A stretch of 64,000 bases of DNA from Algoriphagus algorifonticola. Its GTDB lineage: Bacteria > Bacteroidota > Bacteroidia > Cytophagales > Cyclobacteriaceae. Below, in pieces: positions 29,122 through 29,798 of this stretch. Location: NCBI RefSeq assembly GCF_007655305.1, contig NZ_VLOG01000041.1, forward strand, positions 1 to 64,000, read 5' to 3'. Below the pieces are notes generated by a model that saw only the letters and a list, made by a program, of their open reading frames with translations, ran no database searches and was not told the origin of the DNA. The translations under genes and the position numbers were made by a program. Every line of letters starts with the position of its first letter. Within the stretch, counting starts at the first letter, position 1.

Positions 29122-29199
29122 CGGGGTGTGGCGCAGTCCGGTTAGCGTGCACGTCTGGGGGGCGTGTGGTCGTCCTGACAAAGTCAGGATCATCCCTAC
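29122..29199 (+). pseudogene. Disrupted tRNA-Pro(GGG), 5' part intact
   Basis: Positions 29122-29171 read as the first two thirds of a tRNA. There is an acceptor strand CGGGGTG, D arm GCGC/GCGT, anticodon stem CACGT/GCGTG (29150-29154, 29162-29166) with loop CTGGGGG (anticodon GGG at 29157-29159), and variable TGGTC. After 29171 the expected T arm is missing: instead there is TCCTG-ACAAAGT-CAGGA, and the 3' acceptor strand CATCCCT pairs only imperfectly. A normal TTCAAAT T-loop and acceptor-like end appear about 500 bases downstream (29671-29700). It is probably non-functional, though expression is not excluded. Confidence 0.65.
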
Positions 29200-29360
29200 A
29201 TAATAATTAGAAGTGTTACGGTTAGCATGTCCTGATTCTGGTCTGAGAGGTCGTCCTGACCAAGTCAGGATCACCCCTACATAATAATTAGAAAGTCGAT
29301 GATTAGCATGTCCTGACTGTGGTCAGGATGGTCGTGCTAACAAAGTCAGGTTCACCTTGG
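29168..29360 (+). repeat. Degenerate tandem repeats derived from tRNA-Pro
   Basis: A 45-bp unit (29168-29212, beginning GGTCGTCCTGAC and ending TAATAATTAGAA) recurs at 29249-29293 with two mismatches. Three segments beginning G(G/A)TTAGC(G/A)T (29220, 29301 and 29641) copy the tRNA D-loop/anticodon region. In two of them (29301, 29641) the anticodon arm is replaced by the hairpin TCCTGAC-NNNN-GTCAGGA; in the 29220 copy that hairpin is imperfect. The segments flank the GIY-YIG gene on both sides. Confidence 0.8.
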
Positions 29361-29397
29361 CAATTTCAAAAGTCTCTCTTTCAAATATTTTTTGTTT

Positions 29398-29646
29398 ATG
29401 GAGTTTGTAGTCTACATACTTTTTTCAGAAAGGCTCGGTAAATATTATGTTGGGCAGACATCTGATCTTGATAAACGATTAGAAAGGCACAATTCTGGAA
29501 GAGAGCGATTTACCCGGTTAGGTACTCCTTGGGTTTTGGTTCACTCTGAATTGACTAATTCAAGAGCTGAAGCAATGAAATTAGAAAAGAAAATCAAAAA
29601 TTTGGGTGCGAAGAGATATTTGGAATTGATGAAAAGGGACGGTTAG
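29398..29646 (+). CDS. GIY-YIG nuclease-family protein
   Basis: 82 residues from the ATG at 29398. The single GIY-YIG domain has VVYILFSE (GIY), KYYVGQTSDLDKRLERHNSG (YIG plus the catalytic Arg) and the EAMKLEKKIK helix with the catalytic Glu. Such one-domain proteins are related to UvrC/I-TevI nuclease domains. The stop codon TAG (29644-29646) lies within GGTTAGCG, the tRNA D-loop-derived start of the next repeat. The gene therefore sits inside the broken tRNA-Pro locus, like a mobile or homing element. Confidence 0.85.
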   Translation: MEFVVYILFSERLGKYYVGQTSDLDKRLERHNSGRERFTRLGTPWVLVHSELTNSRAEAMKLEKKIKNLGAKRYLELMKRDG

Positions 29647-29700
29647 CGTATCCTGACTATGGTCAGGATGGTCCTAGTTTCAAATCCTGTCACCCCTACA
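29641..29700 (+). pseudogene. tRNA-Pro-derived 3' segment
   Basis: It begins with the D-loop-like GGTTAGCGTA, then the hairpin TCCTGAC-TATG-GTCAGGA and TGGTC. A recognisable tRNA T-loop TTCAAAT with 3' stem strand CCTGT and acceptor strand CACCCCT follow. The T stem is weakened (CTAGT opposite CCTGT). It would complete the 5' half at 29122-29171, supporting a split ancestral tRNA-Pro(GGG). Confidence 0.55.
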
Positions 29701-29740
29701 ATTAGCTTTAGTACAATTTTTCTAAAAAATGCAAAGAATC

Positions 29741-29771
29741 AAAAAAGGCAGTCGTTCTGGCTGCCTTCTTT
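29741..29771 (-). terminator. Intrinsic terminator of the DoxX gene
   Basis: Stem GGCAGTC / GGCTGCC (one G-T pair), loop GTTCT. On the minus strand it is followed by six T. It lies 34 bases after the DoxX stop codon. Confidence 0.82.
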
Positions 29772-29798
29772 TCTCGATAAACATTAAAAGAAATTTTT

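What the first reader, a model, noticed from the sequence alone, without database searches (positions are those of the whole stretch)
29122..29700. A tRNA-Pro(GGG) gene broken into halves around a GIY-YIG nuclease gene and tRNA-derived repeats
An intact tRNA 5' part (29122-29171) and a T-loop/acceptor-like 3' part (29671-29700) are about 500 bases apart. Between them are repeated copies of tRNA segments and a GIY-YIG gene whose stop codon lies in a copied D-loop. In some copies the anticodon arm is replaced by a TCCTGAC/GTCAGGA hairpin. This looks like a nuclease element that lives in, and copies parts of, a dispensable tRNA gene (tRNA-Pro(UGG) can read all proline codons).
Basis: partly seen in the sequence, partly recalled or inferred. 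Interest (0 to 1): 0.7.

Follow-up and report, generated by a model that had tools for sequence, protein, structure and literature searches.

The report
tRNA-nested nuclease elements with hairpins
A tiny gene for a DNA-cutting enzyme sits between pieces of one tRNA gene, and in the extra pieces an arm of the tRNA has been swapped for a foreign hairpin; the same layout recurs at many different tRNA genes in many bacteria, which points to a little-noticed kind of selfish element that specialises on tRNA genes.

Summary
In this Algoriphagus-like genome the only tRNA-Pro(GGG) found stops after nt 51 and is followed by tRNA-derived copies whose anticodon and/or T arms are replaced by TCCTGAC/GTCAGGA hairpins; an 82-codon GIY-YIG gene lies between copies, its stop codon in a copied D-loop. 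41 of 59 genus genomes have the whole tRNA; the closest relative at the locus has it intact plus hairpin copies, so the break looks like a secondary local deletion. All four small GIY-YIG genes of this genome sit at tRNA genes (Pro, Val, Leu, Met). In a wider sample, 86 of 138 small GIY-YIG loci have an intact tRNA within 600 nt, always on the same strand; 74 of these 86 have a partial copy of that tRNA on the other side. Nuclease lineages follow tRNA isotype (25 changes versus 56 shuffled) and hairpin class (18 versus 37), hardly host order. Best reading: isotype-following, homing-like elements nested in tRNA genes, with a UPF0213/SLX1-type nuclease and its own hairpin. Cutting, movement and expression are inferred, not shown. 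A sister GIY-YIG clade is flanked by CGTC-type palindromic repeats, reported to lack a dedicated transposase.

The parts
29122..29172 (+). 5' part (acceptor, D arm, anticodon arm, variable region) of tRNA-Pro(GGG), nt 1-51
   Evidence: 98% identity to nt 1-51 of the intact gene of G112; no tRNA called by ARAGORN
29173..29199 (+). hairpin TCCTGAC-AAA-GTCAGGA in the place of the T arm, then a mutated acceptor 3' strand (TCATCCCTAC)
   Evidence: compare the intact T arm in L068
29210..29280 (+). tRNA-Pro-derived copy from the D-loop on, decayed hairpin in place of the anticodon arm (29230-29248), hairpin 29254-29270 in place of the T arm, acceptor 3' strand
   Evidence: 81-nt direct repeat; like unit in relative G112
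29291..29358 (+). second tRNA-Pro-derived copy, hairpin 29311-29328 in place of the anticodon arm, decayed hairpin in place of the T arm
29398..29646 (+). small GIY-YIG nuclease gene, 82 aa, UPF0213/SLX1-like; stop codon inside the copied D-loop
   Evidence: PF01541 8.6e-17; profile of the four genes of this genome: UPF0213 3.5e-13, SLX1 8.9e-4; model pLDDT 88.7, best fold match 1zg2
29641..29699 (+). third tRNA-Pro-derived copy: D-loop, hairpin 29650-29669 in place of the anticodon arm, T arm and acceptor 3' strand (29669-29699)
29740..29772 (+). terminator-like stem loop followed by T run, also present downstream of the hairpin copies of G112
   Evidence: read from the sequence

Best explanation
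It is one copy of a widespread, isotype-following element nested in tRNA genes. The element consists of a gene for a small UPF0213/SLX1-type GIY-YIG nuclease, a part copy of the host tRNA (5' part if the intact tRNA lies downstream, 3' part and often the trailer if it lies upstream) and a cognate hairpin that takes the place of an arm, often the anticodon arm, in that copy. Proposed working: the nuclease is expressed from the tRNA's own strand, cuts tRNA genes of its isotype that lack the element, at an arm, and repair from the occupied locus copies the element in while leaving one whole tRNA. The hairpin makes the copy uncuttable and unable to mature as a tRNA, and may be the structure the nuclease recognises. 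Copies then recombine with each other: here one repeat unit was lost between the tRNA and the array, which removed the T arm of the real tRNA-Pro(GGG). Shown: layout, strand rule, isotype and hairpin tracking, conserved catalytic residues, presence and absence between relatives. Inferred: expression, cutting, homing, protective role of the hairpin, order of events in this genome.
For: All four small GIY-YIG genes of this genome lie at tRNA genes. Of 138 sampled loci, 86 have as nearest tRNA within 600 nt one on the same strand and 0 one on the other strand; 0 of 11 UvrC control loci (up to +-2 kb, one cut at a contig end) have a tRNA. 74 of 86 have a partial copy of that tRNA on the other side of the gene, above all 100 (single-base) shuffles. 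Copies upstream of the gene begin at tRNA nt 1-4 in 20 of 26; copies downstream reach the 3' end in 35 of 48, with the trailer also copied in 20 of 34. 15 of the 17 members of the clade without an ARAGORN tRNA label (window included) have a same-strand tRNA fragment against 2 of 33 in the sister clade. Isotype needs 25 changes on the tree against 56.4 shuffled (0 of 500 as low); in 34 rows with named hosts isotype 12 against 18.0 (0 of 500), host group (order, or class or phylum where no order is given) 21 against 23.1 (24 of 500). Hairpin class 18 against 37.1 (0 of 500; 65 rows). Catalytic Y, Y, G, R, H, E are kept in 99-100 of 100. Within the genus at this locus: of 31 loci from 30 genomes, 2 have a GIY-YIG gene and 3 further genomes have TCCTGAC relics without it.
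Against: No cutting, expression or movement was observed. Only one genome per species was at hand, so no recent insertion was caught. An intact tRNA next to the gene should be cut by its own nuclease unless something else protects it. 12 of 86 loci show no copy above shuffles on the other side. No isotype is a single clade: Leu, Val and Asp need 2 changes, Ser 3, Met 5, Asn 5, Pro 11 (unlabelled rows inside add to some), and Ala, Arg, Glu, His, Thr are scattered; specificity is switched at times, and the alignment has only 73 columns. A promoter-like box precedes the 5' copy in only 8 of 20 (intact tRNA 1 of 20). The hairpin classes were defined after looking at the data; 35 of 100 rows have none; the automatic class of this genome's Met locus (TCCCGA) is not the usual Met class (TCCGC), although a TCCGC...GCGGA stem can be read in its copy, and its Leu locus got no class.
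Confidence: 0.6

Rival explanations
1. The hairpin is the mobile unit and the GIY-YIG nuclease is its mobilising enzyme, as a RAYT is for REPs. Hairpins move into the loops of tRNA arms (and other folded places) also in trans, and the tRNA copies are by-products.
For: G086 has a lone TCCCGATACTTATCGGGA in the T loop of tRNA-Pro(GGG) and no GIY-YIG gene in the 2.2 kb fetched. The sister GIY-YIG clade is flanked by CGTC-type palindromic repeats: CGTCATT/AATGACG 2.73 per kb within 500 nt (18 of 33 loci) against 0.18 per kb far away; two scrambled motifs gave 0.25 against 0.15 and 0.15 against 0.05. Such repeats recur elsewhere in several of these genomes. Hairpin class follows the nuclease.
Against: The hairpin of this locus is almost confined to it (4 of 6 places in the genome). 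TCCCGA palindromes number 0 to 77 in 60 genera, so some genomes with elements have few.
Confidence: 0.25
2. An ordinary free-standing homing endonuclease next to a tRNA gene (as SegB in T-even phages); the hairpins are unrelated host repeats that collect in dead tRNA copies.
For: SegB is a GIY-YIG homing endonuclease tied to tRNA genes, cuts inside them and drives tandem repeats (PMC13096335, abstract and passages).
Against: Hairpin class tracks nuclease lineage across hosts, hairpins stand where arms should be (20 chosen loci), and the TCCTGAC hairpin is not a genome-wide repeat. The protein is little more than the bare domain, with UPF0213 and SLX1 ahead of I-TevI as relatives.
Confidence: 0.1
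3. A toxin-like system acting on RNA: the GIY-YIG protein cuts its cognate tRNA and the hairpin-armed copies are transcribed decoys or antidotes.
For: Isotype tracking, same-strand rule and tRNA-like copies would fit.
Against: GIY-YIG enzymes of known activity cut DNA (recalled), and SLX1 is among the nearest solved relatives. Many copies hold only the 5' or only the 3' part of the tRNA.
Confidence: 0.04
4. Chance: tandem tRNA duplication debris with a hitch-hiking gene.
For: tRNA arrays do duplicate and decay (recalled).
Against: Strand rule 86 to 0, copies on the other side in 74 of 86, isotype tracking across phyla.
Confidence: 0.01

Closest known systems
SegB, free-standing GIY-YIG homing endonuclease of T-even phages (PMC13096335, abstract and passages seen)
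   Same: GIY-YIG nuclease, next to and cutting inside tRNA genes, tandem repeats of tRNA plus nuclease gene, shared short sequence between tRNA 5' end and nuclease gene 3' end.
   Different: Phage-borne; the paper reports no favoured isotype; no hairpin-armed tRNA copies in the passages seen. Here: found in bacterial genomes (2 weak partial matches in viral contigs), isotype-following lineages, nearly bare nuclease domain, hairpins.
REP elements with RAYT transposases, and CGTC REPs without a dedicated transposase (PMC3733652, abstract and passages seen)
   Same: Short palindromes grouped round an enzyme gene, palindrome type going with the enzyme.
   Different: RAYTs are tyrosine transposases; here the enzyme is GIY-YIG and the palindromes sit in tRNA arms.
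Integrative elements that use tRNA genes as attachment sites (recalled)
   Same: A partial tRNA is left on one side and a whole tRNA rebuilt on the other.
   Different: Those elements are large and use integrases; here the gene is about 250 bp and the copies are marked by hairpins at the arms.
UPF0213 / SLX1-like GIY-YIG proteins
   Same: Nearest solved sequences and folds.
   Different: No mobile role or tRNA link for UPF0213 was found in the searches made here; the 2006 survey of the superfamily (PMC1564403, passages) shows no tRNA adjacency in the passages seen.

Membership tests
GIY-YIG nuclease superfamily | GIY-YIG domain with catalytic Tyr, Arg, Glu | tested here: met
   PF01541 hits; Y, Y, G, R, H, E kept in 99-100 of 100; fold
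UPF0213/SLX1-like group | nearest sequence and fold relatives UPF0213 and SLX1 | tested here: met
   1zg2 3.5e-13, 1ywl 5.9e-10, SLX1 8.9e-4, I-TevI 7.2e-3; Foldseek rank 1 UPF0213 (2.9e-5), ranks 2-9 SLX1 (3.9e-3 to 5.2e-2)
SegB-type free-standing homing endonuclease | lies beside tRNA genes | tested here: met
   86 of 138 loci with intact tRNA within 600 nt
SegB-type free-standing homing endonuclease | extra DNA-binding region beyond the GIY-YIG domain (recalled as typical) | tested here: not met
   protein is 82 aa, of which the Pfam domain covers 3-72
SegB-type free-standing homing endonuclease | carried by phages | tested here: not met
   one scan of viral contigs gave 2 weak partial matches; 53 loci in bacterial genome contigs
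SegB-type free-standing homing endonuclease | cleaves alleles that lack it and is copied into them | not testable with these tools
   needs an experiment
REP/RAYT system | palindromes associated with the enzyme gene | tested here: met
   hairpins 1.94 per kb near against 0.28 far, 68 of 100 loci; some terminators passed the filter
REP/RAYT system | tyrosine transposase | tested here: not met
   Pfam gives GIY-YIG (and the related T5orf172) only, for the four genes of this genome
REP/RAYT system | palindrome in high copy across the genome | tested here: not met
   TCCTGAC hairpin at 6 places, 4 in this locus; the TCCCGA type of the Val locus is commoner, 42 places
tRNA-targeting integrative element | site-specific integrase and cargo | tested here: not met
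   the sequence between the tRNA pieces of this locus holds only the GIY-YIG gene and the copies

The most novel reading that the evidence does not exclude
Small UPF0213/SLX1-type GIY-YIG nucleases are the mobilising enzymes of a whole class of palindromic elements. One branch drives CGTC REPs, which were reported to lack a dedicated transposase; the other has specialised on tRNA genes, each lineage with its own tRNA isotype and its own hairpin, which it puts in place of tRNA arms.
Probability: 0.4. Interest if true: 0.95.

Novelty: new variant of a known kind. Interest (0 to 1): 0.85.

Why it matters
It would give chromosomes of Bacteroidota and other phyla an element class that specialises on some of the most conserved genes of the cell without killing them, and explain how a cell can lose a tRNA gene. 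It links a nuclease family of unknown role (UPF0213-like) with palindromic repeats, and makes the open question of what moves CGTC REPs directly testable. The broken tRNA copies may also mislead tRNA annotation, and several sampled arrays lie at contig ends.

Tried and rejected
Genome-wide REP as source of the TCCTGAC hairpin: rejected, 6 places in the genome, control pattern 2. Of the two places outside the locus, the one in C33 lies in RNase P RNA, where relatives whose arm could be read have a like stem, so it is most likely a natural helix; the one in C54 was only read.

Phage origin: one scan of viral contigs gave 2 weak partial matches.

Profile search with the four proteins of this genome in genome contigs: not possible; the single window protein was used.

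RNase P P12 arm as another place where such palindromes settle: the simple anchors found the arm in 10 of 29 loci only; left open.

Literature: ten searches of the held open-access library listed no paper on tRNA-nested GIY-YIG genes of bacterial chromosomes or on a GIY-YIG link to REPs; subscription papers and preprints were not searched. Three papers were looked into by passages; the rest were seen as listings.

Rows and samples. The family sample is 93 loci: 4 of this genome, 29 that one search returned, and 60 stretches that I picked from its listed hits, roughly by rank, so it leans to strong hits. L097 (same place as L041), L042 and L063 (domain in a very long frame) were dropped, leaving 90. 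The named sample is 53 loci chosen by likeness to the window protein; L165, L185, L205, L207 and L208 (no full small domain) were dropped, leaving 48. Five rows more than 85% alike were merged, giving 133 for the tree; a locus may be in both samples.

Full report
What was claimed. This is what the sequence shows. The window is part of a 4.45 Mb draft in 68 contigs (G000); the nearest named relatives of the nuclease are from Algoriphagus (70 and 69% identity).

Anatomy here. tRNA-Pro nt 1-51 is followed at once by a hairpin in the place of the T arm and a mutated acceptor strand. Then come copies from the D-loop on, in which hairpins, whole or decayed, stand in the place of anticodon arm and T arm; then the GIY-YIG gene, whose TAG stop is the TAG of a copied D-loop; then a last copy with a hairpin for the anticodon arm and a recognisable T arm and acceptor. 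The tRNA search of the genome gave 31 matches (150 of 374 candidates scored); ARAGORN, run on the 30 loci fetched, names no other Pro(GGG).

What relatives show. 41 of 59 genomes of the genus have the full 76-nt tRNA-Pro(GGG); G000 and G086 have a damaged one; 16 have no match, among them 5 of the 38 genomes at least 99% complete (G000 counted), so this tRNA can be lost. The closest relative at the locus, G112, has the intact tRNA, two hairpin-armed units and the same flanking sequence, and no GIY-YIG gene in the 3.3 kb held. Loss of one unit between the two GGTCG of a G112-like arrangement gives that of the window; this step is inference. G060 has intact tRNA, terminator, GIY-YIG gene, hairpin copy and the start of a second GIY-YIG gene at the contig end, with the stop codon again in the D-loop; G077 has the intact tRNA and the gene. 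Of 31 loci (30 genomes) checked, 2 have the gene and 3 further genomes have TCCTGAC relics only; 3 more have some TCCCGA-type hairpin within the flanks scanned, of unknown meaning. In G086 a lone TCCCGAT palindrome splits the T loop of tRNA-Pro(GGG), with no GIY-YIG gene in the 2.2 kb fetched.

The layout is general. The genome has six PF01541 hits; two lie in long frames (604 and 476 aa), and all four small genes follow a tRNA gene or its remains: Leu(TAA), Pro(GGG), Met, Val(TAC). Hits in 60 genomes of the family, each of another genus, and 53 loci found with the window protein in named genomes were annotated. Of 138 loci, 86 have as nearest tRNA within 600 nt one on the same strand (47 of 90 and 39 of 48) and none one on the opposite strand; 57 upstream, 29 downstream. 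None of 11 UvrC loci from the same genomes has a tRNA in the up to +-2 kb fetched.

The gene is nested. In 74 of the 86, a partial copy of the same tRNA lies on the other side of the gene, above all 100 single-base shuffles. Where the intact tRNA is downstream, the copy is mostly the 5' part (starts at nt 1-4 in 20 of 26; 13 of 26 end at nt 16-32); where it is upstream, the copy reaches the 3' end in 35 of 48 and the following 45 nt are also copied in 20 of 34. A promoter-like box lies before the 5' copy in 8 of 20 and before the intact tRNA in 1 of 20. Copies of 20 chosen loci were printed beside their tRNA: by eye the hairpin stands for the anticodon arm in about half; in others it lies in or beside the D arm, the 3' side of the anticodon arm with the variable region, or the T arm.

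Two clades. In a tree of 133 domains one clade of 33 has no tRNA neighbour; the other 100 hold all 83 rows with a tRNA, plus the window and 16 without a label. Of these 17, window included, 15 have a same-strand tRNA fragment, against 2 of 33 in the other clade. In the tRNA clade isotype needs 25 changes against 56.4 shuffled (0 of 500 as low). Among 34 rows with named hosts, isotype needs 12 against 18.0 (0 of 500) and host group (order, or class or phylum where no order is given) 21 against 23.1 (24 of 500). Hosts include Verrucomicrobiota, Ignavibacteriota, Acidobacteriota, Phycisphaerales and Desulfobacterales. The alignment has only 73 columns, so deep forks are weak, and no isotype is a single clade.

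Hairpins go with the nuclease. Hairpins, with most terminators filtered out, are 1.94 per kb within 300 nt of the gene against 0.28 per kb far off; in the sister clade 1.68 against 0.36. In 65 rows with a hairpin of one of six classes, class needs 18 changes against 37.1 shuffled (0 of 500); Met has TCCGC in 10 of 11, Leu CCTGYC in 4 of 5, Asp TCCCGA in 3 of 3, Pro is mixed. The classes were set after seeing the data and 35 of 100 rows have none. The hairpin here is not a genome-wide repeat; TCCCGA palindromes are more common (42 places against control 2) but vary from 0 to 77 per genome among 60 genera.

The enzyme. Catalytic residues are kept in 99-100 of 100. Nearest solved sequences are UPF0213 proteins, then SLX1, then I-TevI; the model (pLDDT 88.7, pTM 0.77) matches UPF0213 (2.9e-5), then SLX1 at weaker E-values (3.9e-3 and up), UvrC and I-TevI. 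SLX1 is a structure-selective nuclease, which makes cruciform or hairpin DNA a plausible substrate; this is inference.

The sister clade. Its genes are flanked by CGTC-type palindromes: CGTCATT/AATGACG 2.73 per kb within 500 nt (18 of 33 loci) against 0.18 far; tRNA clade 0.09 against 0.10; two scrambled motifs 0.25 against 0.15 and 0.15 against 0.05 in the sister clade. In G057 a palindrome core seen at the gene occurs 37 times (control 0), 14 of them within about 1 kb of the gene. TCGCAATGACG occurs 21, 35, 56 and 9 times in G001, G014, G018 and G024 (controls 0, 2, 1, 2), but is rare or absent (4, 1, 0, 1) in G059, G026, G053 and G000. [quoted passage not shown] A GIY-YIG nuclease is a candidate; 15 of 33 loci do not show the CGTCATT motif.

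Against known systems. SegB is the nearest known worker: GIY-YIG, cuts in tRNA genes, makes tandem repeats, found beside tRNAs in many phages without isotype preference (PMC13096335, abstract and passages). The present genes differ in host, size, isotype tracking and hairpins. RAYT/REP is the nearest by palindrome, but with another enzyme. I therefore file it as a new variant that works like a homing element with a REP-like hairpin, and as a member of neither.

Verdict. Observation confirmed; interpretation right in outline, but the break is most likely secondary and the element class is far wider than this locus. Cutting, homing and the role of the hairpin remain to be tested.

Noticed in passing
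L047, L100, L108, L118, L123, L142, L145, L154 (CGTCATT/AATGACG on both sides) and L141 (related palindromes): A second clade of small GIY-YIG genes is flanked by CGTC-tagged palindromic repeats that recur elsewhere in several of the same genomes; a candidate for the missing enzyme of CGTC REPs.
   Followed up: partly
L231 (G086) about 998-1085: Lone palindrome TCCCGATACTTATCGGGA splits the T loop of tRNA-Pro(GGG), with no GIY-YIG gene in the 2.2 kb fetched: the palindrome may settle alone.
   Followed up: partly
L210 1431-1828 (own genome C33): The P12 arm of RNase P RNA holds CCCCGATAGCTATCGGGG, the same palindrome as in a tRNA-Asn copy (L182); P12 arms read in some relatives differ, several ending in CCTGAGCCTGTCGAAGG-like sequence.
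   Followed up: partly
L232 (G106) about 505-553 and G110:C126:17823-17871: Lone 3' pieces (nt 28-76) of tRNA-Pro(GGG) on the same contig as the intact gene; they could be attachment-site or element relics.
   Followed up: no
own genome C14:16738-16792 (L031, about 1390-1565): A tRNA-Glu-like gene occurs twice in a row round a run of N; assembly gap or tandem copy.
   Followed up: no
L042 and L063: Strong GIY-YIG hits inside very long frames (about 690-1105 aa) in two genera; not small elements, left out of the counts.
   Followed up: no
G001:C44, G031:C1, G039:C33, G043:C15; L139, L140, L155: Tandem arrays of GIY-YIG genes, up to three units listed, some alternating with tRNA-Val copies.
   Followed up: partly
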